From positions 1 to 21,277 of the IMG/VR virus record IMGVR_UViG_3300037200_000335: a stretch of 21,277 bases of DNA; one strand, 5' to 3'. Both the position numbers and the translations under genes were made by a program. The notes beneath the pieces were generated by a model that was given only the letters and a program-made list of their open reading frames with translations, did no database searches and was not told the origin of the DNA. This DNA is from a virus. Positions within the stretch are counted from its first letter, which is position 1; each line of letters starts with the position of its first letter. Below are positions 2,986 through 20,733 of the stretch, in pieces.

Positions 2986-3258
2986 ATGATTGCGATCTGG
3001 AAATACGAGCTTGCCCTAAAAGAACGTCCAGTCCTTGACCTGCCGCGCGACGCTAAAATACTGCACTTCGACAACCAGAGTGAGCGCCCTTGCATCTGGG
3101 TAGAGGTGGTGGACGCCGCGGTCGCATGGGACACGGCTCCACGCAAGTTCCGGCTTGCCGGGACGGGGCATGAACTCGGCTCCGAGCGCCGCGAATACAT
3201 CGGCTCTGCTCTCTTCTCCGGCGGCGCCCTCGTGTTTCACCTCTATGAGATTTTTTGA
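2986..3258 (+). CDS. DUF7352-like small phage protein
   Basis: The 90-residue protein follows a recognisable pattern of small phage proteins: an N-terminal IWKYELALKERPVLDLP, then AKILHFDNQ, a CIWVEVVD strand, FRLAGTGHEL, and a C-terminal REYIGSALFSGGALVFHLYE. Several phage proteins of about 90 residues share the series W-K-[FY]-[EP], AKIL, GTGH, YIG and LVFH. Their role is unknown. The ATG has a strong GAGGAG ribosome site about seven bases upstream. The gene follows 2959 with a short gap and runs up to the methyltransferase. It is probably expressed with the same early chain. Confidence 0.7.
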   Translation: MIAIWKYELALKERPVLDLPRDAKILHFDNQSERPCIWVEVVDAAVAWDTAPRKFRLAGTGHELGSERREYIGSALFSGGALVFHLYEIF

Positions 3259-3262
3259 GCCT

Positions 3263-4597
3263 ATGAAAAAAGCCGGGCGCGCCGACCCCAGAGCCGACCT
3301 GGACGAACGCATGCGATACAAGGGCGACCTGAGCGTTGCTCACGCCGGAGACAACATGACGGCGCTTGCGCGGAGCGCCCTACGTCAACGGGCGGACTAT
3401 ACGCATAAGTTCAATCTCCGCACCGGGCGGCACGGATGGTTGCGCCTCACTCCGGCTTACTCGGTCAAAATTGTCGAAGAGCTGATCGGGAGTTTCAGTG
3501 CGCCGCTGAGGGTTCTCGACCCATTTTGTGGGACTGCGACCACGGCTCTGAGCGCGGCCTATCACGGGCACACGGCCGCCACTACAGATGTAAATCCGTT
3601 CCTCGTCTGGCTCGGCCGCGCAAAGACAGCGGACTACTCACAAGCGACAATCGCTGCCGCTCGCGACGCGTGCACGCGTGCCCTGCGGCTTGTGGACAAA
3701 AGGGCTGTGCACCCTGTTCCTGAACCGCCTCTACACAACATCGAGAGATGGTGGCCCCGCGACGCGCTGATGTTCTTGCGCCTCCTTCGGGCGGCGATCA
3801 TTGCTGTTGCGGCCTCTGGTACGCAGGAAAGGGACCTTCTCGATATCTCCTTCTGCCGAACCTTAATCAAGCTGTCGAACGCCGCTTTTAATCATCAGTC
3901 GATGTCGTTCCGGGATTCGGCTCAAATATCGCTGCATCTTGACGACGATCGAGCTACTTTCTTTAGAGATGATGTCGACTTTGTTCTTGAGGGAGCGAGC
4001 GTCAACCCGTCTGGGTCATGCTCTATAATAGAGGCGGATTCTCGCAATCTTCGTGATCACCTAACAGGCACCTACGATCTTGTAGTCACGTCACCGCCTT
4101 ACGCCAACCGGATGTCGTACATTCGGGAGCTGAGACCTTACATGTATTGGCTCGGCTACCTCGTGAACGGTCGCGACGCCGCCGAACTCGATTGGGGTTC
4201 GATTGGCGGGACGTGGGGAGTTGCAACCAGTCGCCTTATGGATTGGAAGCCAACCAGTAAAGGGCGCTATCACTCTCAGGAACTAGATGAGGTTGCAGAG
4301 AGGATCGCGCACGAGAAGAACGCTAATGGCCGCCTGCTCTCAAACTATGTAGCAAAATATTTTCAAGATATGTGGATGCACTTAGGGCAATTACGCACAG
4401 TTCTCTCGCCGTCTGCCAAGGTGCACTACATCGTAGGAAATTCTACATTTTATGGCGTTCTGCTTTCTAGTGAAAAAATATACGCCGACATGCTTTCACG
4501 TCTTGGATTTACCGAAGTGAACGTTAGGGCTGTTCGTAAGCGCAATTCAAAAAAGGAACTCGTCGAGTTCGATATCTCTGCAACGTTTCCGGGCTAG
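3263..4597 (+). CDS. Orphan DNA methyltransferase (SPPY-type, m4C or m6A)
   Basis: The 444-residue protein is an S-adenosylmethionine-dependent DNA methyltransferase. Motif I is VLDPFCGTATT (84-94), preceded by the motif X-like stretch KFNLRTGRHGWLRLTPAYS (49-67). The catalytic motif IV is DLVVTSPPY (272-280), followed by RELRPYMYWLGYL. SPPY is most common in N4-cytosine enzymes but also occurs in N6-adenine ones. The order X-I-IV, with about 190 residues between I and IV, is consistent with a helical target-recognition insert. No restriction enzyme gene is adjacent, so it is probably a phage protective or regulatory methylase. Codon use drifts towards AT after about 3840, hinting at transfer. 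The start is uncertain: 3263 lies just after the preceding stop, while the ATG at 3356 has the best ribosome site (GGAG, five bases away) and still keeps the domain. Confidence 0.85.
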   Translation: MKKAGRADPRADLDERMRYKGDLSVAHAGDNMTALARSALRQRADYTHKFNLRTGRHGWLRLTPAYSVKIVEELIGSFSAPLRVLDPFCGTATTALSAAYHGHTAATTDVNPFLVWLGRAKTADYSQATIAAARDACTRALRLVDKRAVHPVPEPPLHNIERWWPRDALMFLRLLRAAIIAVAASGTQERDLLDISFCRTLIKLSNAAFNHQSMSFRDSAQISLHLDDDRATFFRDDVDFVLEGASVNPSGSCSIIEADSRNLRDHLTGTYDLVVTSPPYANRMSYIRELRPYMYWLGYLVNGRDAAELDWGSIGGTWGVATSRLMDWKPTSKGRYHSQELDEVAERIAHEKNANGRLLSNYVAKYFQDMWMHLGQLRTVLSPSAKVHYIVGNSTFYGVLLSSEKIYADMLSRLGFTEVNVRAVRKRNSKKELVEFDISATFPG

Positions 4598-8149: not shown

Positions 8150-10186
8150 GTGCCACCGCCCGAGGACGATGGTCCGACGCCGGCCGCGATCAATCCCGAC
8201 GTAGCCCGTGCCCGGCGGGAAGAACGATCAGCGATCCGTCGTCGGAAGAAGGTAACGACGGACGCGGCGACCGCGCGTACGAAGACGACTTTCGACAGTT
8301 TCCAGAATTTTGTCGCGAGCGTAGGCGTTGGAACGAATAATGTAACCTCCGCGAGTGGTTACGGGTTTTCGCCGATCACCCGCAACCACATAGAATTGGA
8401 ATGGATGTATCGCGGTTCCTGGATAATCCAGGTCGCGGTTGATTACCTGGCCGACGATACGATGGCCCGCGGCATCAAGCTGGGGTCCGAGCTCGACCCG
8501 GAAGACGGCGAGAAGCTGCTCCGCGCGATACGCAAGTCCGGTAACTGGGATAAGTTGCGTCTAACGCATAAGTGGGGCCGGCTATACGGCGGCTGTATGG
8601 CGATCATGATGATCGACGGGCAGGACATGAAGACCCCGTTGAATATCGAGTCGATCCGGCCGGGCCAGTTTAAGGGCCTAATCGTGATGGACCGGTGGAT
8701 GGTCAACGCCTCGGTCGGCGAACTGGTGGAAAGCCCCGGCGACGACTTCGGGCAACCAAAGTACTATGACGTGCAGGTGGCGATACCGGGCCTAGGCAAC
8801 GCCCGTGTGCACCATAGCCGGTGCCTGCGGATCGACGGGATCGAGTTGCCCTATTGGCAGAAGGTCTCGGAAAACTATTGGTCCATGAGCGTGGTCGAGC
8901 CGCTATGGGACCGGCTGATCGCGTTCGACTCGACGACGCTCGGCGCCGCGCAGCTCGTCTTCAAGGCGTACCTGCGTACGTGGAAGGTTAAGGGCCTGCG
9001 CGATATCTTGGGATCGAACGTGATCGCCGAACAGGCGCTGGTACGCAACGCCCAATACATGCGGCAGTTCCAGTCGAACGAATCCATCAGCCTCGTGGAC
9101 GCCGAAGACGAGTTCGACGCGCAGACCTATTCGTTCGCCGGTTTGCCGGAAACGCTGCAGCAGTTTGCGCAGCAGTTGAGCGGTGCGTTGGGCATACCGC
9201 TGGTGCGGCTGTTCGGGCAGAGCCCGAGCGGCTTTTCCAGCGGCGAAGCCGACATATCGAATTACGACGATAACGTTGAGCACCATCAGGAAGCGCGGGT
9301 TCGCAAGCCGCTGGATAAGCTCTTACAGGTGTCAGCGCGTTCGATCGGCATTAAGCTGCCCGATACATTCTCGTGGACGTTCAACCCGTTCCGCGTGCTC
9401 GACGAAAATCAGAAAGCCGACGTGGCGGAGAAGATCACGCGTACGGTGGGCGATGCCCGCGAGCGCGGGCTGGTAAGCGACCAAGCCGCCGCGAAAGAGC
9501 TCAAACAGCAATCCGTGACGACCGGTATTTTCACGAATATCACGGACGATTTTATCGAGCAGCTCGATGATAAGCCCCCGCCGGCCGGTGAGGGCGAGAT
9601 GGGCGGCGGTGAAGGCGCGCCGGGGATACCGGATATGGGCGCTGGTGCAGGTGCAGGTGCTGCAGGTCAGAACGAAGAACGTTCCGACCAACTGCAACCG
9701 CAGATGGAAGAAGATTCTGTCATCCCGCAAGGGCGGACTAACAACTGGCGTCGCGTTCACTTTCACGTGGTAGATGCGGCCCGTGAGCTTATGCTTCACG
9801 GCCTGCCGATCTATCTCGAGACGCGTCGCGGCGAAGAACGCCGGGGCCTGCGCGGGTGGACGACGAAGATGCCAGCGGATTACGGTTTCATCCGTAATAC
9901 CGGCAGCGCCGAGGGGCCGAGCGAGGGCCTGGACGTGTTCGTCGGGCCGGAGCGCGATTCGAAGGAAGTATTCGTGATCGACCAGGTCGATCCGAGTACG
10001 GGTGATTTTGACGAACACAAATGCATGCTCGCCTATCCGTCGCGCGTGCTGGCGCTGCGTGATTATCAGCGCGCGTTTTCGGACGGCAGCGGCGCGGCGC
10101 GGATCGGCGGCGTGAAGCATATGTCGATGGATCAGTTTAAGGATTGGCTCGAAAACGGCGATTGCACGAAGCCGGTGGCCGCGTGA
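8150..10186 (+). CDS. Portal protein (DUF1073 type) with C-terminal pyrophosphatase-like domain
   Basis: The 678-residue protein has two recognised parts. Residues about 45-480 form a DUF1073-type portal, the ring at the capsid vertex through which DNA passes. Typical segments are YRGSWIIQVAVDYLADD, WGRLYGGCMAIMMIDGQD, IELPYWQKVSENYWSMSVVE and LPETLQQFAQQLSGALGIP, followed by VRLFGQSPSGFSSGEADI. A Gly-Ala-Pro-rich linker (about 480-515) leads to residues 552-668, which match the InPase-like pyrophosphatase domain known from phage and mobile-element polyvalent proteins: TKMPADYGFIRNT, DVFVGPERDSKEVFVIDQVD, FDEHKCMLAY and MSMDQFKDWLEN. The fused domain may be carried in the virion or act on phosphorylated substrates; this is inference. 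The start is the GTG at 8150, with GAGG seven bases upstream. Confidence 0.85.
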   Translation: MPPPEDDGPTPAAINPDVARARREERSAIRRRKKVTTDAATARTKTTFDSFQNFVASVGVGTNNVTSASGYGFSPITRNHIELEWMYRGSWIIQVAVDYLADDTMARGIKLGSELDPEDGEKLLRAIRKSGNWDKLRLTHKWGRLYGGCMAIMMIDGQDMKTPLNIESIRPGQFKGLIVMDRWMVNASVGELVESPGDDFGQPKYYDVQVAIPGLGNARVHHSRCLRIDGIELPYWQKVSENYWSMSVVEPLWDRLIAFDSTTLGAAQLVFKAYLRTWKVKGLRDILGSNVIAEQALVRNAQYMRQFQSNESISLVDAEDEFDAQTYSFAGLPETLQQFAQQLSGALGIPLVRLFGQSPSGFSSGEADISNYDDNVEHHQEARVRKPLDKLLQVSARSIGIKLPDTFSWTFNPFRVLDENQKADVAEKITRTVGDARERGLVSDQAAAKELKQQSVTTGIFTNITDDFIEQLDDKPPPAGEGEMGGGEGAPGIPDMGAGAGAGAAGQNEERSDQLQPQMEEDSVIPQGRTNNWRRVHFHVVDAARELMLHGLPIYLETRRGEERRGLRGWTTKMPADYGFIRNTGSAEGPSEGLDVFVGPERDSKEVFVIDQVDPSTGDFDEHKCMLAYPSRVLALRDYQRAFSDGSGAARIGGVKHMSMDQFKDWLENGDCTKPVAA

Positions 10187-10812: not shown

Positions 10813-11607
10813 ATGGTAAAAACGCAAGCGACATCGTTTTTCGACCGTAAACGCGAAACCCTAGCCGAGCGTCACGCGTTCTCGCAGGCGCGGCTCGCGG
10901 AGCTCGAATACGGCCGCAAGCTACGGCAGGTAGCGAAGAACGTCGGCGAATACGTTAAGGCTCTGTTTCCGGGTGGCGAGCCGACGCACCCTAGCGCGTT
11001 GGCCCAGCTTCATTATACGATGCGCGCGTACGCGCAGCTCTTGCGCCCGTGGGCCACAGCGGTAGGCAACCGGATGATCGCCGACGTCAGTCGCCGGAAC
11101 GCGCGGGCCTGGTTCAAGGCGGCGGAAAAGATGGAGAGGCCGCTGCGGCGGGAGTTGGCAACCGTTCAGGTCGGCGACGTGGTTCGCGCCCGCTTGAATG
11201 CCCAGGTAGCGTTGATCACGAGCCTACCGATTGAGGCCGCGGAACGGGTACATAAGCTCACGCTCGAAGGTATGGTGACCGGCGTGCGCGCCAAGGAAAT
11301 CGCGGCGGAAATCGCCAAGTCGGGCGAGGTCACCGCGAGCCGCGCCACGTTGATCGCGCGCACGGAGGTCGGCCGTACTTCGACCGAATTCACCCGCGTC
11401 CGCGCAGAGCGGTTGGGCTCGACGCATTTCGTTTGGCGGTCGGCGCGCGATCGCGACGTACGTAAGATCCATAAAGCGTTGGAAGGCACGGTACATCGGT
11501 GGGACGACCCACCCGTTGCCGGTGAAAATGGTGAGCGGGCTTTACCAGGGGCTATCTATAATTGCCGCTGCTGGCCCGAGCCCATCTTGCCCGACGCAAT
11601 CTATTGA
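10813..11607 (+). CDS. SPP1 gp7 / Mu F-like head morphogenesis protein
   Basis: The 264-residue protein belongs to the minor head proteins that bind the portal and help start capsid assembly or DNA delivery. The N-terminal 110 residues are helical and basic. The C-terminal half carries the family pattern: VTASRATLIARTEVGRTSTE (about 175-194), HFVWRSARDRDVRKIHKALE and the closing PGAIYNCRCWPEP, with the conserved Asn-Cys-Arg-Cys. The position after the portal fits. The ATG at 10813 has a GAGAAAG-type site upstream. A run of genes for exported proteins begins about 110 bases after its stop, where capsid protease genes would usually follow directly. Confidence 0.85.
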   Translation: MVKTQATSFFDRKRETLAERHAFSQARLAELEYGRKLRQVAKNVGEYVKALFPGGEPTHPSALAQLHYTMRAYAQLLRPWATAVGNRMIADVSRRNARAWFKAAEKMERPLRRELATVQVGDVVRARLNAQVALITSLPIEAAERVHKLTLEGMVTGVRAKEIAAEIAKSGEVTASRATLIARTEVGRTSTEFTRVRAERLGSTHFVWRSARDRDVRKIHKALEGTVHRWDDPPVAGENGERALPGAIYNCRCWPEPILPDAIY

Positions 11608-11717: not shown

Positions 11718-12194
11718 ATGAAACTTCGCCGTTTCCCGCTGTTTTCGTTCGCCGCCCTGCTCGTGGCGTTGCTGCTCACCGATTCGGGTATGGCCGCGGC
11801 GCAGAAGCCGCAGCAAACCTTCGGCGTGCTGCCGTTGCCGAACAGCGGCATCGTGATCAGCCACGTCGAGAGTGTGGCGTCCTCGACGAATTGCAACGAG
11901 GTCTTCGCGACGACCGCGTCGCAATCGATCAGCGCGATCTGGGGCCTCAACGTCGTCAACACGAACGCCACGACGTATTACTTGAAATTCTACGATACGG
12001 CTACGGTGCCGACGGCCGGTTCGGGTACGCCGAAGCTCGTCTTCGCGCTGCTGCAAAACCAGCCTCTTCAGAAGGGCTATTTGTTCGGCTTACCGTTCAA
12101 GAACGGCATCGGCTATTGCATCGTTGGCGCGATCGCGGACGCCGACAGCTCGAACTCGGCGGCCGGTATCTCGGTGGACGTGGCCCACTACTAG
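11718..12194 (+). CDS. Exported virion-like protein 1 (Sec signal peptide)
   Basis: The 158-residue protein opens with a textbook Sec signal peptide: basic MKLRRF, hydrophobic FAALLVALLLTDSG and a likely cleavage after MAAA or AQ (about residue 28). The mature part resembles a small module of phage fibre or decoration proteins, with TTYYLKFYDTATVPTAGSGTP, then FALLQNQPLQKGYLFGLPF and NGIGYCIVGAIADAD. It holds exactly two Cys (in TNCNEV and GYCIVG), which could form one disulfide after export. GAGGGA lies five bases before the ATG at 11718. An upstream in-frame extension is unsupported. It is first in a set of four exported proteins in the head operon. Confidence 0.7.
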   Translation: MKLRRFPLFSFAALLVALLLTDSGMAAAQKPQQTFGVLPLPNSGIVISHVESVASSTNCNEVFATTASQSISAIWGLNVVNTNATTYYLKFYDTATVPTAGSGTPKLVFALLQNQPLQKGYLFGLPFKNGIGYCIVGAIADADSSNSAAGISVDVAHY

Positions 12195-12230
12195 GTCATT
12201 AGCTCGCGCAGCGAAACGCACGCAAGCTTC

Positions 12231-13547
12231 ATGAAGCAGTTCGCGCTCCTACTATCGGCGCTCCTATTCGTCGCGTTCCCGGCGCTCGCGCAGGCGCCGC
12301 AGCCGACCATCGCGTATGTTGTCACTTCGACGGGCACGGGAAGCTTGTCAGCTTCTACGACCTCGGGCAACGTCGCGATTCCCGCGGGCGGTCCGACCCT
12401 CTGGGTGCAGAATACGGGGACCGTCCCGGTCTGCGTGGCCCTCGGAACGTCCAGCGCGGTAAAGGCGGTGCTGCCTTGCCCAGCGAGTCCGCCGGTCACG
12501 AACATAGCGCCGGGTGCCACGGCGCAGTTGGGCATCGGGTCGAGCACCTACATCGCGGCGATCACCGGGACCGGGACTGCCTCACTCGTGCTGACGTCGG
12601 GCTACCTGACGCTGGCGAGCGACACGATAGCCGGGTCGGTGACCGCGAACCAGGGCACACCAAACACGGACGCGAACGCGTGGCCGGTTACGCTCGTTAT
12701 CGGCGGCGCGCTCAACAGTGCGACGAACGGCACTTACACGAACCTGTTGCAGGGCAACGCGGTCCTGTCGACCACGAATCCGCTGTTCTTTACCCCGGCG
12801 ACGGGCGCCAATCTGGCCCAGGAGACCGGCGGTAATCTCGCACAGTCGGTCACCGACTTCGGCGCGCCAGGCGCCACGGCCTGCGCGACGGACACGTCGA
12901 GCTGCAACTTCAATCAGTTGTTCCAACGCATCGCGCAGCGACTGTCGACGATCAACACGACACTCAATGCGCCAATGCAAACGACGGGTGGCGCGGTAGG
13001 GCTCGTCGCGGGTACCGCGAACATAGGTGGCGTGGCGCTGTCGCCGGTCATCACAAATCCGACCTCAACTCTCACGCTTCCAAGCTCAACCTCGGCTTAT
13101 ACCGCTGGGCAGCTTATCGCGAACAATGCGACCGCAGGTTCTATTACGGTACCGAGCTTCGCCATCGCGACGAGCGCGGGCGCAGCGGCGATCCCGCGCC
13201 TGCGTTTGTCGACGAACGACACGACCTCGACATCATGGGGCGGCGTTCAGGTGCAGGTTGACCTGTGGTCCGCTGCGCCGACATGGACGAACGGTGATCA
13301 TGCAACGTGGCTTCCGGCGACCGGCTCGGCTGTGCACCTTGGAGCGTTTACCTGCGCGTTCCCCGGTGCGAGCGGTACGATCTGGGGCGACGGTCTCGCG
13401 ACCGAGTGTTATCCGCAGGTCGGAAACTTCCCGATGCCCAAGCTCGCGAGCGGTACCTCGATCTTCTGGTCACTTCAGGCACTTACCGCGTCGGGTGTGA
13501 TCGGCGCGAGCAAGGTGTTTACGCTGACCGCCGAGTTGCAGAACTAA
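12231..13547 (+). CDS. Exported virion-like protein 2 (Sec signal peptide)
   Basis: The 438-residue protein begins MKQFALLLSALLFVAFPALA, a clear Sec signal peptide with an ALA-type cleavage site near residue 20. The mature protein is Thr, Ser, Ala and Gly-rich and reads like beta-structured phage tail or decoration proteins: SVTANQGTPNTDANAWPVTL, AYTAGQLIANNATAGSITVP and VQVDLWSAAPTWTNGDHATW. It has six Cys after the signal peptide, again an even number. Its role is unknown; receptor or polysaccharide binding would fit the composition. No strong ribosome site precedes the ATG at 12231; it follows the first exported gene by 36 bases, so coupled expression is likely. Confidence 0.7.
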   Translation: MKQFALLLSALLFVAFPALAQAPQPTIAYVVTSTGTGSLSASTTSGNVAIPAGGPTLWVQNTGTVPVCVALGTSSAVKAVLPCPASPPVTNIAPGATAQLGIGSSTYIAAITGTGTASLVLTSGYLTLASDTIAGSVTANQGTPNTDANAWPVTLVIGGALNSATNGTYTNLLQGNAVLSTTNPLFFTPATGANLAQETGGNLAQSVTDFGAPGATACATDTSSCNFNQLFQRIAQRLSTINTTLNAPMQTTGGAVGLVAGTANIGGVALSPVITNPTSTLTLPSSTSAYTAGQLIANNATAGSITVPSFAIATSAGAAAIPRLRLSTNDTTSTSWGGVQVQVDLWSAAPTWTNGDHATWLPATGSAVHLGAFTCAFPGASGTIWGDGLATECYPQVGNFPMPKLASGTSIFWSLQALTASGVIGASKVFTLTAELQN

Positions 13548-13549
13548 AG

Positions 13550-14797
13550 ATGCGTCGCCTTCTCGCTTCCGCATTGGTCTGGTTGGCGCTCGCCGGCGCA
13601 GCGCACGCGCTGCCGACGCAGGCGATGTTTGGTCGGCCGGTACAGTTCTTCGCCGGTAAGCCATTCGACTGCATTTTGACACAGAACATCTGCGCGCAAC
13701 CGGGACGCGGAACGGGACCGGCCGCCGCGTTTTTGACTACTTCGCGTGCCTCGACGGGCTACAACAGCGATCAGAACGGCTTCTACGTCAGCTTTCCGAA
13801 CAACGCGCTGCGTTTCGTTTACGGCGTTGGGCCGGTGATCGAGGAAAGCCGGACAAACGACGCGCTCTGGTCGCGCGACATGACCAATGCCGCCTGGACT
13901 AAGGTGGGCATGGGGACGGCGAAGAACGCCGTTGGGATCGACGGGACGGCCAATTCCGCGACGACGCTGACGGCGACAGGGACGGCGAGTTCTTGCACGG
14001 CATCTTGCACGGCACTCCAAACGATCACGCTGGGTTCCACGGCGGACACCTACTCCGTGTTTCTCAAGCGAGTATCTGGTTCCGGCGCGGTCAATATCAC
14101 AATCAACAATCTGGTCGGTACGACTGCCTGCACGTTGGTCACGACCGGCTTCAAGCGCTGCACGGTGACGGCGACGCTTGCCAATCCGGTCATTGGCATT
14201 CAGATGGCCGGGCTTAATGATGTGATTGTCGCCGACTGGAACCAGATGGAGCCGGGCAGTTTCGTGACGACGCCGATCGGGCCGACGACGAGCGGCTCTG
14301 CTGTTCGCGCAGCGGACGTGGTGACGGCGACGACTGTGCCAGCGTTCGGTCCCGCTTATACGCTTTACGCGAGCGGGACGCCGGAAGCGCCGACGAGTTA
14401 TGGAACGAGCCAATATCCAATTAGCGCGGGGTTGACGTCCTCGACAAATAACTTTGTTGGCATGACTAGAATGTTCAGCAGTGGGCAACCAGTTTTGTTA
14501 GTCATAGTTGGCGGTAGCGTGACGGCAAACCAGAGCATCTCAGGTAGCGCTTGGGCCGCAAACGCTTTAGGGAAAGTAGCCACCGCGTTTTCAAGCGGAA
14601 ATCAAAACGCTACGTTTAACGGGGGGGCTATTTCAAATACGACCGGAAGTATACCTGCCTTAGCAGAAGTTAATATTGGTTCTGTCGTTAATAGCTCTCA
14701 GTATTTCAACGGCACTATCTCCCGCGTCGCGCTCTGGCCCACGACGGCGCTGTCGAGCGCGCAGTTGCAGCAAATCACCTCGGGGCCGGGGCCGTGA
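13550..14797 (+). CDS. Exported virion-like protein 3 with lectin-like domain
   Basis: The 415-residue protein starts MRRLLASALVWLALAGAAHA, a clear Sec signal peptide. After it comes a segment frequent in phage tail spikes and fibres, with VIEESRTNDALWSRDMTNAA and WTKVGMGTAKNAV, followed by a Thr and Ser-rich beta region and a C-terminal part (INNTTG-type repeats, then FNGTISRVALWPTTALS) that resembles concanavalin or LamG-like sugar-binding folds. Six Cys lie in the mature part. The stretch 14440-14700 is visibly lower in GC than its flanks, suggesting a swapped C-terminal domain. The ATG sits two bases after the preceding stop, so translation is tightly coupled. Confidence 0.7.
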   Translation: MRRLLASALVWLALAGAAHALPTQAMFGRPVQFFAGKPFDCILTQNICAQPGRGTGPAAAFLTTSRASTGYNSDQNGFYVSFPNNALRFVYGVGPVIEESRTNDALWSRDMTNAAWTKVGMGTAKNAVGIDGTANSATTLTATGTASSCTASCTALQTITLGSTADTYSVFLKRVSGSGAVNITINNLVGTTACTLVTTGFKRCTVTATLANPVIGIQMAGLNDVIVADWNQMEPGSFVTTPIGPTTSGSAVRAADVVTATTVPAFGPAYTLYASGTPEAPTSYGTSQYPISAGLTSSTNNFVGMTRMFSSGQPVLLVIVGGSVTANQSISGSAWAANALGKVATAFSSGNQNATFNGGAISNTTGSIPALAEVNIGSVVNSSQYFNGTISRVALWPTTALSSAQLQQITSGPGP

Positions 14798-14874
14798 TTT
14801 ATGTGGCGACGCACTCTGGGGCCGTACGGGCTGATGACCTGCGAAGACTTGATCTTAGAGGAGTTACATCGTGA
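14794..14874 (+). CDS. Possible 26-residue coupled peptide
   Basis: This short frame reads MIYVATHSGAVRADDLRRLD and LRGVTS. Its GTG start overlaps the stop of the preceding gene as GTGA, and its own stop overlaps the GTG of the next gene in the same way. The double overlap is the main support and explains why the 70-base gap has no stop in this frame. It may be a translational bridge rather than a functional peptide. Confidence 0.3.
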   Translation: MIYVATHSGAVRADDLRRLDLRGVTS

Positions 14875-15467
14875 TGTTCAATCGTTTCCTCGCCGCCGCT
14901 ATCGTCGCCGCGCTGTTGGCGACCCCGCTCACCGCGCCCCGCGCCGAATCGTACGTCGATCGCAACGAGGCCGCGGCCGGCGCGTTTCAGAGTGGTAACG
15001 CCCCGCATCACGTTATGCCGTGGGGCGTTATCTACGAAATCCTGGCGACTGCGGCCGGCGCGACCGGTACGGGCGAGCAGACGCTCGGCACGTATTCGCT
15101 GCCCGCGAACGCGCTTGACGTGGCCGGGCGTCACCTGCGTATTACGGCCGACTTCGCCAAGGCCGCGAATGGCAATAGCGTGACTCCGAAGCTCTATTTC
15201 GGTAGCGAGTCGCTCGCGACCGCGGCCAATACGACCTCGGCCGGGGCGATGAAAATCGTTTGCGACGTGTTGAAGACCGGCGCCTCGACCCAATCGGTCA
15301 ACTGTTGGGGCCTCGGCGGCACGTCGGGCGTGACGCCGGTTATCTACTCGCAGCCGGCGGCGACGGAAACTGATTCTTCAGCGATTACCATCAAAGCGAC
15401 CTGCACGGGCGGTACGACCGGCGCCGATTGCACACTTTCTGACTTCGTGGTCGAGTACCTCAATTAG
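14871..15467 (+). CDS. Exported virion-like protein 4 (Sec signal peptide)
   Basis: The 198-residue protein has a Sec signal peptide, MFNRFLAAAIVAALLATPLT, with a likely cleavage after APRAE or nearby. The mature part matches a beta-rich module of phage tail and fibre proteins: LGTYSLPANALDVAGRHLRI, TADFAKAANGNSVTPKLYFG, and a closing TLSDFVVEYLN. It contains four Cys, again even. AGAGGAG lies seven bases before the GTG at 14871 and ten before the ATG at 14874; either could be used, and the signal peptide is unaffected. It closes the exported cluster, directly before the protease-scaffold gene. Confidence 0.7.
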   Translation: MMFNRFLAAAIVAALLATPLTAPRAESYVDRNEAAAGAFQSGNAPHHVMPWGVIYEILATAAGATGTGEQTLGTYSLPANALDVAGRHLRITADFAKAANGNSVTPKLYFGSESLATAANTTSAGAMKIVCDVLKTGASTQSVNCWGLGGTSGVTPVIYSQPAATETDSSAITIKATCTGGTTGADCTLSDFVVEYLN

Positions 15468-15536: not shown

Positions 15537-17282
15537 ATGCGTTTCTACGCTGACCCGGTTGCTTTGGGTTCGAAGCGGGCGTACACGCCCGAGGGCTACC
15601 TCGTCATCGAGGACGTGCCCATCGCGAGAACCGGTGACCAGCTCTATGCACCCCACGAAGTAGGCTTGCAGGGCGATAGGGACGGAGTCGTTCGCGTTAG
15701 CCGCGAGCCGGAGGAAGTATTCCGACCCGAAACGTTGGCGAGCTGGAATGGCAAAGACGTTATCAACGATCACCCTTCCGACGGTCAGCTTCTCACGACC
15801 GATACGTGGCGAAAATATACCTGCGGCACGATGCTTAACCCGCGCCGCGGGACCGGCAACCGAGACGATTTAACGCTGGTCGATTTCGTGGTCAAGGACC
15901 CGAAGACGATTCGAGACGTGTTAGACGGCAAGATCGAAGTGAGCGCCGGATATGATTGTGAATATGAGCAGACCGGTCCAGGTCGCGGTCGTCAGTTGAA
16001 TATCGTGGGCAACCACGCCGCTTTCGTGGACGCTGGCCGGTGCGGAATACGCTGCGCGGTCGGCGACCGCCTACCCCCCAAGTTTCGAACGAGGAGTTCC
16101 CTTATGGCCCTTACCGCCACCTTGGACCGCGGCACGACGCGGATTCGCTCGCGCTGGCATCGTTTTGCCGATCGGCTCAACCGAGCGATTTCGACCGGCG
16201 ACGAAGAAGAACTCGAGCGCCTGGGCGGCGAGGCGGAAACGCTGGCGGGCGAGGAGCATTTTTCCGAAATGTCCGAACCCACCGAGGCCGGCGAAGAGGG
16301 CAGCGGCGGCGAATTGCACGTACACGTCCATACGGGCGACGAAGAAGAGGAACCGGACGATATGACGGGTATGGATCGCGGTCGGCGCCACCGTGGGGGC
16401 CGGGACGCCCCCGAACCGGGCGAAGGTCTCGACCCCATGGGTGGTGAGCCCGATGGGGACGAGCCGGCGACCAAAGCCGATATCGCGGCGCTCGCGGCGA
16501 TGATCAAGGATTTGGCGGACATGGACGACGAGGGCGACGACCTCGACGACGAGGAAGCCGAGGGCGGCGAGGTAGCCGATCGACGAATGCAGTTGCGGGA
16601 TCGTCGGCGCGGCGCCCGCGACGCCATCCGTCGGTTTGCCGACGAGGTCGGCGAAATCGTCGAGACGAAACACAATCCCGATTCGACCGGTCGTAACGAC
16701 GCGCCGGGCACCGCCGGTTCGGGCGCGAAAGGCATCAAGTCGGAGCCGGTGCATAAGGGCGACGCGCCGGGCGCGAATGATCGGCGTACCGTTGGAGGAA
16801 GACGTCGCAGCACCGGCGACGGTGCAACGATGGACAGCCGCGCGCTGCAAAGCGCTTGGGACTTGGCGGTGAGCCAAGCCGAGATCCTGGCGCCGGGCGT
16901 CGAGCTTTACGAATCGGGGCGTAAGATCGCGTTCGACGCGGCGGCGCCCGCGACGGTCACCGAACGGCGTATCTGCGCGCTGCGCCGTCGGGCGCTCGAC
17001 TCGGCGCTGCAGACCCGCGAGGGCCGCGCGGTACTCGACGAGGTGACCGCCGGGGTCACGGTCAACTTGCGCACCGTGGGTTGCGACGCGCTGACGCCTT
17101 ATTTCAACGCGGCGGTTGGGATCGTTGCCGAGCGTAATCGCAGCGTTACCGCGCGGGTCGCGGCGACCAAGGCGACGGTGGACGCGGGTAAGAACGAGCG
17201 ACCGTTGAGCGCGGCGGCTACGCCGGCCGATATGAACCGCGTATTCCGGGAACGGTACAAGTCCACGGCGACGCTGCGCTAG
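15537..17282 (+). CDS. DUF2213-type prohead protease with scaffold region
   Basis: The 581-residue protein combines a DUF2213 domain, a predicted capsid-maturation protease, with a long acidic scaffold-like part. The N-terminal domain (1-180) has NDHPSD (His79), VSAGYDCEYE (Ser136) and VGNHAAFVDAGR (His160), the pattern expected of a serine protease related to other prohead proteases. Residues about 210-360 are Asp, Glu and Gly-rich, probably flexible. The C-terminal 150 residues (from MDSRALQSAWDLAVSQAEIL) look folded and conserved, ending MNRVFRERYKSTATLR. Proteases of this class cut the scaffold and capsid proteins during head maturation. An internal start at 16104 probably yields the scaffold alone. 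Confidence 0.8.
   Translation: MRFYADPVALGSKRAYTPEGYLVIEDVPIARTGDQLYAPHEVGLQGDRDGVVRVSREPEEVFRPETLASWNGKDVINDHPSDGQLLTTDTWRKYTCGTMLNPRRGTGNRDDLTLVDFVVKDPKTIRDVLDGKIEVSAGYDCEYEQTGPGRGRQLNIVGNHAAFVDAGRCGIRCAVGDRLPPKFRTRSSLMALTATLDRGTTRIRSRWHRFADRLNRAISTGDEEELERLGGEAETLAGEEHFSEMSEPTEAGEEGSGGELHVHVHTGDEEEEPDDMTGMDRGRRHRGGRDAPEPGEGLDPMGGEPDGDEPATKADIAALAAMIKDLADMDDEGDDLDDEEAEGGEVADRRMQLRDRRRGARDAIRRFADEVGEIVETKHNPDSTGRNDAPGTAGSGAKGIKSEPVHKGDAPGANDRRTVGGRRRSTGDGATMDSRALQSAWDLAVSQAEILAPGVELYESGRKIAFDAAAPATVTERRICALRRRALDSALQTREGRAVLDEVTAGVTVNLRTVGCDALTPYFNAAVGIVAERNRSVTARVAATKATVDAGKNERPLSAAATPADMNRVFRERYKSTATLR
16104..17282 (+). CDS. Probable nested scaffold protein from an internal start
   Basis: Within the protease gene and in the same frame, GAGGAG at 16091-16096 lies seven bases before an ATG at 16104, a better ribosome site than that of the full gene. 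The product (392 residues, starting MALTATLDRGTTRIRSRWHR) would lack the whole protease domain but keep the acidic and C-terminal parts. This mirrors lambda C/Nu3 and similar phages, in which a scaffold is translated from inside the protease gene. Confidence 0.55.
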   Translation: MALTATLDRGTTRIRSRWHRFADRLNRAISTGDEEELERLGGEAETLAGEEHFSEMSEPTEAGEEGSGGELHVHVHTGDEEEEPDDMTGMDRGRRHRGGRDAPEPGEGLDPMGGEPDGDEPATKADIAALAAMIKDLADMDDEGDDLDDEEAEGGEVADRRMQLRDRRRGARDAIRRFADEVGEIVETKHNPDSTGRNDAPGTAGSGAKGIKSEPVHKGDAPGANDRRTVGGRRRSTGDGATMDSRALQSAWDLAVSQAEILAPGVELYESGRKIAFDAAAPATVTERRICALRRRALDSALQTREGRAVLDEVTAGVTVNLRTVGCDALTPYFNAAVGIVAERNRSVTARVAATKATVDAGKNERPLSAAATPADMNRVFRERYKSTATLR

Positions 17283-17359: not shown

Positions 17360-17887
17360 ATGGTTTCACTAACTTATCGCATGGGCGCGGGCTATCCCGG
17401 TGATTACAATAGAACCGCCGCCGGCCAAACCATCACGCCCGAGGCCGCCAACCCCTCGTTTCCGATCCCCGCTTACGGCTTGCCCGTCAAGTACGTGAGC
17501 TCCGGTTCCGGTATTGGGCCAATCGTGAACGGTGATACGTCGGCCGTGGTCATCGGCGTGCTGATGCGCGAGTTCCCGTCGCAGGCGATGCCGCCCAATA
17601 CGTACGGCGCGGGTCAGTCGCTTTCCGTGCCACCGGTCCCGCCGACGCAGGGGCCGCTCTCGGTCATGCGCCGCGGATTTTGCGTGGTAAACGTGAACGC
17701 GGGGTCGAGCGCCGCGGCGGTTAAAGGCAACCCGGCTTACATTTGGACCGCGGCGGCCTCGACTGGCCACCTCGTGGGCGGTATCGAGGCGACCGAAGTG
17801 CCCGGCTCGACGATTCTGTTTCCCGGCGCGACGTTTCGCGGCGGCGTTGATAGTTCAGGAAATGTTGAACTAGAATGGAACCTTTAA
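17360..17887 (+). CDS. Capsid cement/decoration protein (DUF2190/gp24-like)
   Basis: The 175-residue protein sits between the protease-scaffold and the major capsid gene, where decoration or cement proteins lie. It begins MVSLTYRMGAGYPGDYNRTA and contains strands such as GLPVKYVSSG, VVIGVLMREFPSQAMPPNTY and PLSVMRRGFCVVNVNAGSSA, then KGNPAYIWTAAASTGHLVGG. These match the cement proteins that stabilise expanded capsids in DUF2213/DUF2184 phages. AAAGGA lies before the ATG at 17360 with a normal spacing. One Cys is present. The assignment rests on gene order and these motifs. Confidence 0.7.
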   Translation: MVSLTYRMGAGYPGDYNRTAAGQTITPEAANPSFPIPAYGLPVKYVSSGSGIGPIVNGDTSAVVIGVLMREFPSQAMPPNTYGAGQSLSVPPVPPTQGPLSVMRRGFCVVNVNAGSSAAAVKGNPAYIWTAAASTGHLVGGIEATEVPGSTILFPGATFRGGVDSSGNVELEWNL

Positions 17888-17955: not shown

Positions 17956-18984
17956 ATGATGCTAGATTTCACCAGCGCTCGCGGGTTGGGCGCCGCCGCC
18001 ACTATGGATCGTGGCAATCCGACGTTCGACTCGACTGGTGTTTTCTTCGTCAACGAGCTCGAACGGCTTGACATGACTTTGCACGAGCCGCAAGTAAATA
18101 TCACGTGGCAGCGCGATATTGACCTGCGCGAGGACGTGACGATCGGCGACGACAGCGCGTCGTTTACCGTTTCGAATTACGGGTCGCCGGGCGGTCTCAC
18201 CTCGACCGGTATCAATTGGATGTCCAAGGACGCGGACGCCATCACCGGGCCTAGCGTTGATATCGGCAAGACCGCGCAACCGCTTATCCCTTGGGGCACC
18301 GAGGTTCGGTACACGCAGCTCGAAGTCGAATCGTCCAAGCTGGCCGGGCGCCCGATCGACGCGCAGAAATATGCGGCGATGCAGCTCAAGCACCAGATGG
18401 ACATTGACCAGATGGTGTATATCGGAGATTCGACCTACGGGGCGGGTTATACCGGTATGGCGAATGCGGCGGCGGTTACGGCGTCGTTCGCCGCGGTGGG
18501 CGCGAGCGGTTCCACGCTTTGGATCAACAAAACCCCGACCGAAATTCTCGCAGATATCGATGCGGTCTGCGTCAATACGTGGATCGCGACCGGCGGCGCG
18601 GTGTTCCCGGATCGGGTGCTGATCCCGTTCGCCCAAGAGGCGTATATTGCATCGCAGTTGATCAGCGGCGCCGGCAGCGCGTCGATCCTGTCGTTCGTGC
18701 TGGCGAACTCGCTTTGCAACCGACGCAACGGTCGGCCGCTCGATATCCAATCCACGAAATGGATGCTCGGGATCGGGGTCGGCGGGACCCAGGGCGTCGC
18801 GGGTACGGTCGATCGGATGATGGCCTATACGCGCAACCTTAACTTCGTGCGATACCCGATGACGGGCATGGTACGGACGCCGGTGCAATACCGCAGCCAG
18901 TTCATCGCCAGCACCTACATGTGCAAACTCGGCATCATCGAGGAAGTTTACAGCGAAAATTCTTACTATCTTGACGGAATTTAG
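17956..18984 (+). CDS. Major capsid protein (DUF2184 type)
   Basis: The 342-residue protein is the shell subunit of the phage head. It matches DUF2184 capsid proteins: FFVNELERLDMTLHEPQVNI near the N-terminus, a DIGKTAQPLIPWGTEVRYTQ strand, LEVESSKLAGRPIDAQKYAA, HQMDIDQMVYIGDSTYGAGY, and a C-terminal NLNFVRYPMTGMVRTPVQYR followed by YMCKLGIIEEVYSEN. The DUF1073 portal and DUF2213 protease upstream are its usual partners, which supports the call. The start ATGATG at 17956 has AGGA about ten bases upstream. A prepared cleavage site after the N-terminus cannot be judged from sequence alone. Confidence 0.85.
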   Translation: MMLDFTSARGLGAAATMDRGNPTFDSTGVFFVNELERLDMTLHEPQVNITWQRDIDLREDVTIGDDSASFTVSNYGSPGGLTSTGINWMSKDADAITGPSVDIGKTAQPLIPWGTEVRYTQLEVESSKLAGRPIDAQKYAAMQLKHQMDIDQMVYIGDSTYGAGYTGMANAAAVTASFAAVGASGSTLWINKTPTEILADIDAVCVNTWIATGGAVFPDRVLIPFAQEAYIASQLISGAGSASILSFVLANSLCNRRNGRPLDIQSTKWMLGIGVGGTQGVAGTVDRMMAYTRNLNFVRYPMTGMVRTPVQYRSQFIASTYMCKLGIIEEVYSENSYYLDGI

Positions 18985-19001: not shown

Positions 19002-19754
19002 ATGGCGGCACGGGACGATTCAGAAAGCTCCGCACAAGCTTCGGATCGGCTTATCGTCGCACTTGATGTCCCGAACTTCAGCGCTGCAGAGGTTTTGGTC
19101 GATGGACTAAACGGAGAAGTATCCTTTTACAAGATCGGGCTGCATCTACAACTTGATCGCGGTCTACACAGATTATTTGAAAAGATTGTGTCAGATAGAA
19201 AACATATTTTTCTAGATTTCAAGACGTTCGACATTCCAGCCACTGTAGCTGGGGCAGTACGTGCCGCGTCGGCGCTTGGAATCGATTTTATCACTGTAAC
19301 CGGACAACGGGCAATAGTTGAGGCTGCCGTGAGCGCCCGCAGCAATGGGCTAAAAATTTTAGTTGTTACCTTGCTTACAGGGATGAACGAACAGGATATG
19401 TGGCACGATTACGGTACGAAAATGCCTATGAACGAATTTATCGCTCAACGTGCGCAATTTGCGGCCAGCGCGGGTTGCGATGGTGTCATTTCGTCCGCTC
19501 AAGAAGTGAGCCTTATCCGTGACGCTGTGAAGGGTCGACCAGATTTTTTGATTGTAACACCCGGCATTCGCCCGAGGGGTGTTGATGTGGACGATCAAAA
19601 ACGGGTGGCTACGCCATATGAGGCAATTAGGAACGGGGCCGACTATTTGGTCGTGGGTCGTCCCATCATCCACAACCCCCATCCCTTGGAAGCCGCTCGC
19701 GACATTCTTCGTGAAATGGATATGGGGTTCGAGACACGGCTAGTTCAATCATAG
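19002..19754 (+). CDS. pyrF: Orotidine 5'-phosphate decarboxylase
   Basis: The 250-residue enzyme converts orotidine 5'-phosphate to UMP, the last step of pyrimidine synthesis, in the cytoplasm. All key motifs are present: LIVALDV (Asp22), FYKIGLHL (Lys44), the catalytic FLDFKTFDIPATV (Asp72, Lys74, Asp77), FITVTGQ, VTPGIRPRG and the phosphate-binding VVGRPI. The usual DLKFHDIP is altered to DFKTFDIP, but the charged residues are kept, so activity is expected. GC is clearly lower than in the flanking genes (about 40% over 19141-19260), and no other pyrimidine gene is near. Its place right after the major capsid gene marks it as a transferred auxiliary gene. Only a weak ribosome site precedes the ATG at 19002. 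Confidence 0.9.
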   Translation: MAARDDSESSAQASDRLIVALDVPNFSAAEVLVDGLNGEVSFYKIGLHLQLDRGLHRLFEKIVSDRKHIFLDFKTFDIPATVAGAVRAASALGIDFITVTGQRAIVEAAVSARSNGLKILVVTLLTGMNEQDMWHDYGTKMPMNEFIAQRAQFAASAGCDGVISSAQEVSLIRDAVKGRPDFLIVTPGIRPRGVDVDDQKRVATPYEAIRNGADYLVVGRPIIHNPHPLEAARDILREMDMGFETRLVQS

Positions 19755-20145: not shown

Positions 20146-20733
20146 ATGATCCTTCTCAAACTCCCCCGCGACATCACGGTCAGTTTTACCGGGGCCGGCG
20201 TTCTGGCGCATAACGCGATGCGCGCGCTCAGCGGCCAGATCATGCACCTCAAGGAAGGTTTTAATCGGGTCGCGGACGAGGTGGCGCAGCATCCGATGCT
20301 GCGTCCGTTCGTGGTGGACGACAGCGCGTTGCCGGAACCGGTCGAGGAGAAGACCGTAATCGAAACGGCGGTACACGAGCCCGAGCTGGAACCGCCGACG
20401 TCGGTAGCGAGTCTGATGGCGACGTCGAACGAGCCCGACGCCGATGCCAAAGCCGTGGAGCGAGCTAAGATGGCGTCCGCGGACGCCGAAGCCGCCCGCC
20501 GTGCGGCAGTTGGCGCGCAAAGCGGGGCGACTGGAACTATCGGCCCGACCGGCGCCACGGGAATGACAGCCGGTCCGACCGGTACGACCGGAATGACCGG
20601 CGCCACGGGAATGACCGGCGCCACGGGAATGACCGGTACGACCGGAATGACCGGCGCCACGGGAATGACCGGTACGACCGGTTCGACCGGAATGACCGGG
20701 ACTACCGGTTCGACCGGCCCGAGCAACGCGTAA
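20146..20733 (+). CDS. Collagen-like repeat protein sharing a domain with its neighbour
   Basis: The 195-residue protein begins [20 protein letters not shown], a domain of about 65 residues shared with the 19769 gene. A charged, probably helical linker follows ([20 protein letters not shown]), then a collagen-like tail of Gly-X-Thr triplets from about residue 126 ([15 protein letters not shown] and onward) to the end (GSTGPSNA). Gly-X-Y tails form trimeric stalks in phage fibres and surface proteins, with Thr and Met here in place of Pro. GGAG lies seven bases before the ATG. A trimeric head or tail fibre is plausible but not shown. Confidence 0.7.
20524..20727 (+). repeat. Collagen-type DNA repeat
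   Basis: Nine-base-based units coding for [12 protein letters not shown] and GSTG follow one another, with near-identical blocks such as GGAATGACCGGCGCCACG repeated several times. Such tracts change length easily by slippage and recombination, so copy number may differ between related phages or be misassembled. Confidence 0.7.

What the first reader, a model, noticed from the sequence alone, without database searches (positions are those of the whole stretch)
11718..15467. Four consecutive Sec-exported, virion-like proteins inside the head operon
Proteins starting at 11718, 12231, 13550 and 14871 each begin with a classical signal peptide, and their mature parts read like phage fibre, decoration or lectin modules. 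Virion proteins are normally assembled in the cytoplasm and are not exported. Finding four in a row between the gp7-like and protease-scaffold genes suggests a dedicated exported set made during late infection: surface decoys against superinfection, host-surface modifiers, or virion parts added in the periplasm. This is the best candidate for an undescribed system in the window.
Basis: partly seen in the sequence, partly recalled or inferred. Interest (0 to 1): 0.85.

Follow-up and report, generated by a model that had tools for sequence, protein, structure and literature searches.

The report
Exported virion-like proteins in head operon
In the middle of its capsid genes this soil-type phage carries four genes whose products look like pieces of virus surface fibres but carry export signals and paired cysteines, and related phages keep doing the same in the same place, so these viruses probably release surface-active proteins outside the cytoplasm late in infection.

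Summary
Four consecutive ORFs (SP1-SP4, 11718-15467) between the MuF-like gene and the DUF2213 protease gene begin with Sec-type signal peptides; no other gene in the window does. It is not chance. In about 50 related loci, signal-peptide ORFs are enriched in this same slot (16/151 against 20/1237 elsewhere, p=2e-7). SP1 has at least eight divergent relatives that keep a signal peptide. SP-bearing proteins have even cysteine numbers (33 even, 7 odd) far more often than others (276 even, 390 odd; p=3e-7). In the SP1 family, two cysteines at fixed columns occur only in signal-peptide copies (9/9 and 8/9, against 0/9 in phages whose copy lacks the signal). This indicates real export and disulfide bonding. 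SP3 is the distal half of a 'tail protein' family (phrog_5939) with a lectin-like end; its N-terminal half is replaced by a signal peptide. My best explanation is a late, exported set of detached receptor- or glycan-binding modules acting at the envelope or on debris (receptor masking). Virion decoration added after lysis remains a live rival. Caveat: in a few relatives MCP and cement proteins also have signal-like N-termini, probably propeptides. No description of such a set was found in the searchable literature. Function is inferred.

The parts
10813..11607 (+). MuF/gp7-like head morphogenesis protein; upstream border of the slot
   Evidence: PF04233 E 2.4e-17; phrog_324 E 3e-61
11718..12194 (+). 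SP1: signal peptide plus all-beta phage domain; mature part has 2 Cys
   Evidence: Sequence; exported relatives L005, L063 x2, L066 x2, L074, L133, L137; non-exported relatives in cultured phages; AlphaFold2 mean pLDDT 73.5, pTM 0.69, all beta; top BFVD matches are uncharacterised Caudovirales proteins, TM 0.75-0.79
12231..13547 (+). SP2: signal peptide plus multi-module protein with the TANQGTPNTDANAWPV module; 6 mature Cys
   Evidence: C-terminal domain 48% identical to an exported protein in L107
13550..14797 (+). SP3: signal peptide plus distal half of a tail-protein family and a LamG/ConA-like C-terminus; 6 mature Cys; starts 2 nt after the SP2 stop
   Evidence: phrog_5939 E 1.4e-21 (residues 63-412 to profile 372-763 of 801), Laminin_G_3 E 3e-5, below cut-off; SP-less relatives L104-L106; last 125 aa have GC3 0.576 against 0.741 for the rest
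14871..15467 (+). SP4: signal peptide plus beta-rich-looking protein without detected relatives; 4 mature Cys
15537..17282 (+). DUF2213 head maturation protease/scaffold; downstream border of the slot
   Evidence: PF09979 E 3.2e-43; phrog_1961 E 7e-82
17360..17887 (+). capsid cement protein
   Evidence: PF22758 E 1.6e-14
17956..18984 (+). major capsid protein (DUF2184 type), used as bait for related loci
   Evidence: PF09950 E 3.5e-61
8150..10186 (+). portal protein with C-terminal InPase domain; upstream context
   Evidence: PF06381 E 3e-95, PF18823 E 4e-29

Best explanation
SP1-SP4 are late-operon proteins exported through Sec, cleaved by signal peptidase and folded with disulfide bonds in the periplasm. 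They derive from receptor- or glycan-binding modules of virion fibres, with the virion-anchoring part lost (SP3) or absent. I think they act at the host envelope and on cell debris: they bind the surface glycans that the phage uses, so late in infection and at lysis they mask receptors against superinfection and against futile re-adsorption of progeny, as T5 Llp does for FhuA. Shown by sequence: four signal peptides in one operon; conservation of signal peptide and position in relatives; cysteine pairing tied to the signal peptide; homology to virion modules. Inferred: cleavage, disulfides, crossing of the outer membrane or release only at lysis, ligand, and the receptor-masking role.
For: Four adjacent signal peptides, none elsewhere in the window. 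Strict signal-peptide ORFs in relatives: slot 16/151 (10.6%) against 20/1237 (1.6%) elsewhere, odds ratio 7.2, p 1.9e-7. SP1 relatives keep the signal peptide at 25-43% identity, in tandem pairs in L063 and L066. Cys parity: SP+ 33 even/7 odd/6 zero, SP- 276/390/294, p 3e-7. SP1 family: Cys at two columns in 9/9 and 8/9 SP+ copies, 0/9 in SP- copies. SP2 module: SP+ copies have 2, 2, 8, 4, 4, 4 and 6 Cys, SP- copies mostly 0 or 1. SP3 matches only profile positions 372-763 of an 801-position tail family, with a signal peptide where the N-terminal half would be, and has Cys pairs absent from its signal-less relative L104. Other relatives export envelope-active proteins: GDSL hydrolases joined to tail-type parts (L049, L056, L064) and a PEP-CTERM sorted protein (L029). 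No terminator or promoter signal above background separates the block from the head genes.
Against: No experiment and no virion proteomics. No direct link to a receptor or to exclusion. A soluble periplasmic protein reaches the cell surface only by another route or at lysis. Position among head genes fits virion decoration equally well. Some MCP and cement proteins of relatives have signal-like N-termini, so such N-termini are not proof of export by themselves. The SP+ SP1 copies form one clade, so signal and Cys pair may have been gained once. The home-made SP rule has clear false positives (for example a DNA methylase, L090 5839-6834).
Confidence: 0.42

Rival explanations
1. Extracytoplasmic virion parts: SP1-SP4 are head decorations or fibres that are exported, matured with disulfides in the periplasm, and attach to virions when lysis mixes the compartments.
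For: Location inside the head operon beside MuF and protease genes; modules are homologous to ORFs lying among virion genes in cultured phages; weak fold resemblance to viral coat and appendage proteins.
Against: SP3 lacks the N-terminal half of its tail-protein family; none of the identified SP1-SP4 proteins carries the head-type R-x-[KR]-T-x-D N-terminal motif seen in MCP and cement; lysis dilutes periplasmic proteins; no precedent found in the searched literature.
Confidence: 0.27
2. Moron-like host-surface modifiers or adhesins that change the infected cell or lysogen (lysogenic conversion) rather than protecting progeny.
For: Exported GDSL hydrolases and a PEP-CTERM protein in related phages; rapid module turnover, with the lectin-like end of SP3 differing in composition.
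Against: No promoter or terminator above chance around the genes; they are embedded in the late head operon and so probably silent in a lysogen; no integrase seen in this fragment.
Confidence: 0.13
3. The N-termini are not export signals but hydrophobic propeptides or membrane anchors used in head assembly and removed by the DUF2213 protease.
For: In L043, L058, L070, L072, L086 and L091, MCP and/or cement carry signal-like N-termini with plausible ribosome sites.
Against: Those extensions occur in protein families with an RxKTRD-type motif (MCP 32/94, cement 13/78) that SP1-SP4 lack, and these proteins show no even-Cys preference (0, 0, 1, 1, 3, 4), whereas slot proteins do.
Confidence: 0.1
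4. Chance or misannotation: spurious ORFs or chance hydrophobic N-termini.
For: Heuristic predictor; SP4 has no relatives.
Against: Four in a row, family conservation, slot enrichment and Cys statistics.
Confidence: 0.03

Closest known systems
Phage T5 Llp (receptor-blocking lipoprotein) and other superinfection-exclusion proteins (own knowledge)
   Same: Phage-encoded exported protein; the proposed role is blocking the phage's own receptor and protecting progeny from inactivation by envelope debris
   Different: Llp is a small lipoprotein encoded by a single gene outside the head module; here four non-lipoprotein, disulfide-type proteins derived from virion modules lie in the head operon
phrog_5939 tail proteins with LamG/ConA-like ends
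   Same: SP3 residues 63-412 match this family (E 1.4e-21)
   Different: SP3 has a signal peptide in place of the N-terminal half and gained Cys pairs
SP1-domain ORFs of cultured phages (Caulobacter KSC, Cr30, S2B; Octadecabacter DB2; Xanthomonas PBR31; Synechococcus DSL-LC07; Arthrobacter Tweety19; Mycobacterium Funsized)
   Same: Same domain, most of them lying near tail, packaging or lysis genes
   Different: No signal peptide and no Cys at the two diagnostic columns
Exported slot proteins of related uncultured phages (L005, L015, L040, L048, L053, L056, L059, L063, L066, L074, L081, L090, L094)
   Same: Same operon slot, signal peptide, mature part mostly with 2 Cys
   Different: Different modules; usually 1-3 genes rather than 4

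Membership tests
Sec / signal peptidase I substrates | basic n-region, hydrophobic core, A-x-A site | tested here: met
   SP2 and SP3 pass the strict rule, SP4 the relaxed rule; SP1 has the strongest core but fails the rule on an Asp before the site; eight SP1 relatives carry a signal peptide. SignalP not available.
Sec / signal peptidase I substrates | signature of extracytoplasmic folding (paired cysteines) | tested here: met
   2, 6, 6 and 4 mature Cys; family-wide parity and column tests
Sec / signal peptidase I substrates | cleavage and export shown in cells | not testable with these tools
   needs fractionation or fusion assay
Receptor-masking / superinfection-exclusion proteins | exported to the envelope | tested here: inconclusive
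   export supported by prediction and cysteine pairing only; envelope location unknown
Receptor-masking / superinfection-exclusion proteins | binds or blocks the phage's receptor | not testable with these tools
   SP3 lectin-like end is suggestive only (Laminin_G_3 below cut-off)
Phage tail protein family phrog_5939 | sequence match over the family | tested here: inconclusive
   only profile 372-763 of 801 matched; N-terminal half absent
Head proteins processed by the prohead protease | R-x-[KR]-T-x-D-type N-terminal motif seen in MCP and cement of relatives | tested here: not met
   absent from the first 75 residues of SP1-SP4 and of the SP1 relatives; present in 32/94 MCPs and 13/78 cements
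Structural virion proteins | present in purified particles | not testable with these tools
   no virion available
Lysogenic-conversion morons | own promoter and terminator | tested here: not met
   1 promoter-like and 5 terminator-like sites, not above shuffles; scan covers sigma-70-type sites only

The most novel reading that the evidence does not exclude
A whole lineage of environmental tailed phages completes its particles outside the cytoplasm: surface modules are exported through Sec, disulfide-bonded in the periplasm and attached to heads at lysis, giving tailed phages an extracytoplasmic maturation step encoded inside the head operon.
Probability: 0.2. Interest if true: 0.9.

Novelty: new variant of a known kind. 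Interest (0 to 1): 0.62.

Why it matters
Exported phage proteins are usually single lysis, exclusion or moron proteins. A recurring slot inside the head operon that holds exported, disulfide-paired copies of virion surface modules would be a general and overlooked class of phage-secreted proteins. It would show that fibre modules are repurposed as soluble envelope-active proteins, or that some tailed phages add virion parts after the cytoplasm. Signal peptide plus cysteine pairing is a simple sequence test that could find such proteins in many genomes where they are now listed as hypothetical or tail proteins.

Tried and rejected
Near DNA search of the window in phages: no match. SP1 and SP4 as single queries in viral contigs: none. 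SP2 in phages and plasmids: none. SP3 in phages: none; in plasmids one weak SGNH/GDSL match in Mesorhizobium. Pfam: no hit for SP1, SP2, SP4. PDB by sequence: nothing credible for SP1, SP3, SP4. AlphaFold2 of SP3: pLDDT 33.6, unusable, not searched. PDB Foldseek for SP1: only weak coat or jelly-roll-like matches (TM at most about 0.5), not used as evidence of kinship. No coordinates were available, so Cys-Cys distances could not be measured. Literature searches for exported virion-like phage proteins gave no description (five papers opened mention signal-peptide prediction only as a method or for lysis proteins). A sample of 398 genomes gave two SP1-domain matches: one exported copy close to another exported protein (L137), and one without a signal (L138). 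Considered and rejected: spurious ORFs, and lipoproteins (none of the four has a Cys right after the predicted site).

Full report
OBSERVATION. The window is a whole 21,277-base IMG/VR fragment. Its gene order is terminase, portal (fused to an InPase domain), MuF-like, SP1, SP2, SP3, SP4, DUF2213 protease/scaffold, cement, DUF2184-type major capsid protein (MCP), pyrF. SP1-SP4 lie on the + strand with gaps of 110, 36, 2, 73 and 69 bases from MuF to DUF2213. Promoter-like and terminator-like sites are not above shuffles. Each starts with a Sec-type signal peptide: basic n-region, hydrophobic core, A-x-A-like site. With a home-made rule (10/10 E. coli controls pass relaxed, 7/10 strict), SP2 and SP3 pass strict and SP4 passes relaxed. 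SP1 fails only because an Asp lies between the core and AAA|Q. No other window gene passes.

MORE THAN CHANCE? The MCP was used as bait, and ORFs in related loci were sorted by position. Strict signal-peptide ORFs of at least 90 aa are 16/151 in the MuF-to-DUF2213 slot against 20/1237 in the pre-portal, core and post-MCP classes (Fisher p 1.9e-7); 0.07% of internal pseudo-starts and 0.5% of shuffled N-termini pass. The window was excluded. Some loci are related to each other, so the p-value is optimistic. Eleven of 54 loci have a strict case; a relaxed listing adds more. The rule has false positives (for example the cytosine methylase-like L090 5839-6834).

SP1 FAMILY. Signal-peptide-bearing relatives occur in L005, L063 (two), L066 (two) and L074 upstream of the DUF2213 gene, at 27-35% overall identity, in L133 upstream of a terminase-like gene and in L137, a contig of a bacterial genome. 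The same domain without a signal peptide occurs in eight cultured phages and in L138. In an alignment of 18 copies, Cys at one column is present in 9/9 signal-bearing and 0/9 signal-less copies, and at a second column in 8/9 and 0/9; the window copy has its second Cys elsewhere. The signal-bearing copies form one clade in a midpoint-rooted tree, so the gain may be a single event. It has nevertheless been kept across very divergent copies.

SP2 AND SP3. The SP2 module TANQGTPNTDANAWPV or a neighbouring part was found in 25 viral contigs. Signal-bearing copies (L107, L109, L110, L111, L114, L131, window) have 2, 2, 8, 4, 4, 4 and 6 mature Cys; signal-less copies mostly 0 or 1 (exceptions L121 with 4, L128 and L129 with 2). 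SP3 matches positions 372-763 of the 801-position tail-protein family phrog_5939 (E 1.4e-21) and weakly Laminin_G_3. Its relative L104 (48% identical over the shared part) has no signal peptide; the SSCTASC insert and the C...C of TACTLVTTGFKRC in SP3 are non-Cys there. The SP3 C-terminus has lower GC3 (0.576 against 0.741), suggesting a recently exchanged module. SP4 has no detected relative.

CYSTEINE PARITY. Over all loci, signal-bearing ORFs have 33 even, 7 odd and 6 zero Cys counts; gene-like signal-less ORFs 276, 390 and 294 (Fisher p 3e-7). Cytoplasmic proteins have no reason for such pairing; exported, disulfide-bonded proteins do. This is the main reason I take the signal peptides as functional.

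A COMPLICATION. In L043, L058, L070, L072, L086 and L091 the MCP and/or cement gene also has a signal-like N-terminal extension. MCP and cement N-termini of this group often contain an R-x-[KR]-T-x-D motif (MCP 32/94, cement 13/78; 1 of 346 upstream unassigned ORFs) that SP1-SP4 lack. I read those extensions as head propeptides, perhaps processed by the DUF2213 protease (inference). They show that a signal-like N-terminus alone is not proof of export.

WIDER PATTERN. Runs of exported virion-like proteins also occur elsewhere: L109 (three adjacent, one weakly like a tail-fibre-assembly family), L131 (after baseplate-like genes), L110, L133 and L137. L056 has, besides its slot protein, two exported proteins with the tail-fibre-like motif ARTNLGLGT, one with GDSL hydrolase and Ig-like domains. 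L049 and L064 also export GDSL hydrolases, and L029 exports a PEP-CTERM protein. These point to the envelope and its glycans as the place of action.

MECHANISM. Shown: sequence features, conservation, homology. Inferred: Sec export, signal peptidase I cleavage, disulfide bonding, release to the envelope or lysate. Most likely role (0.42): detached receptor- or glycan-binding modules that mask receptors late in infection and on debris. Rivals: extracytoplasmic virion decoration (0.27), moron-like surface modification (0.13), head propeptides (0.10), chance (0.03). The absence of the N-terminal half of the tail family in SP3 favours a soluble module over a virion part, but this is weak.

STRUCTURE AND LITERATURE. 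AlphaFold2 gives SP1 as an all-beta domain (pLDDT 73.5, pTM 0.69). Its best BFVD matches are uncharacterised Caudovirales proteins, and PDB matches are weak. The SP3 model failed. Searches of open-access papers found no description of this set; subscription papers and preprints were not searchable, so novelty is not proven.

VERDICT. Observation confirmed; interpretation partly supported. A new variant of a known kind (phage-encoded exported proteins), with a more radical reading (extracytoplasmic maturation) not excluded.

Noticed in passing
L086 9143-9736 and 9800-10975; L091 9158-9745 and 9812-11005; L070 and L072 9755-10966; L043 8131-8760; L058 1085-2152: Major capsid and cement proteins of relatives carry signal-peptide-like N-terminal extensions with plausible ribosome sites.
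   Followed up: partly
L015-L094, N-termini of MCP and cement genes: A shared R-x-[KR]-T-x-D motif (RAKTRD, RMKTRD, RARTRD) near the N-termini of MCP (32/94) and cement (13/78), sometimes also DUF2213, portal and MuF proteins; possible propeptide, protease site or head-targeting tag.
   Followed up: partly
window 19002-19754: Complete pyrF-like (OMP decarboxylase, PF00215 E 2.6e-48) gene directly after the MCP gene, with GC3 0.476 against about 0.75 in neighbours; probably a recent acquisition.
   Followed up: no
window 8150-10186: Portal protein fused to a C-terminal InPase (PF18823, E 4e-29) domain in one continuous ORF.
   Followed up: no
L029 13615-14508 and 14501-15181: Phage contig encodes an exported protein with a PEP-CTERM sorting motif next to a second signal-peptide protein, downstream of the MCP.
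   Followed up: partly
L056 17090-18916, L049 1989-3311, L064 7044-8768: Exported GDSL/SGNH hydrolases, some with tail-fibre-like N-terminal parts, in three related phages.
   Followed up: partly
window 20146-20733: Collagen-like Gly-x-y repeat protein downstream of the capsid genes, similar to collagen-like tail proteins.
   Followed up: no
window 3155-4597: DNA methyltransferase-like ORF (phrog_18146, E 1e-28) upstream of the terminase genes.
   Followed up: no
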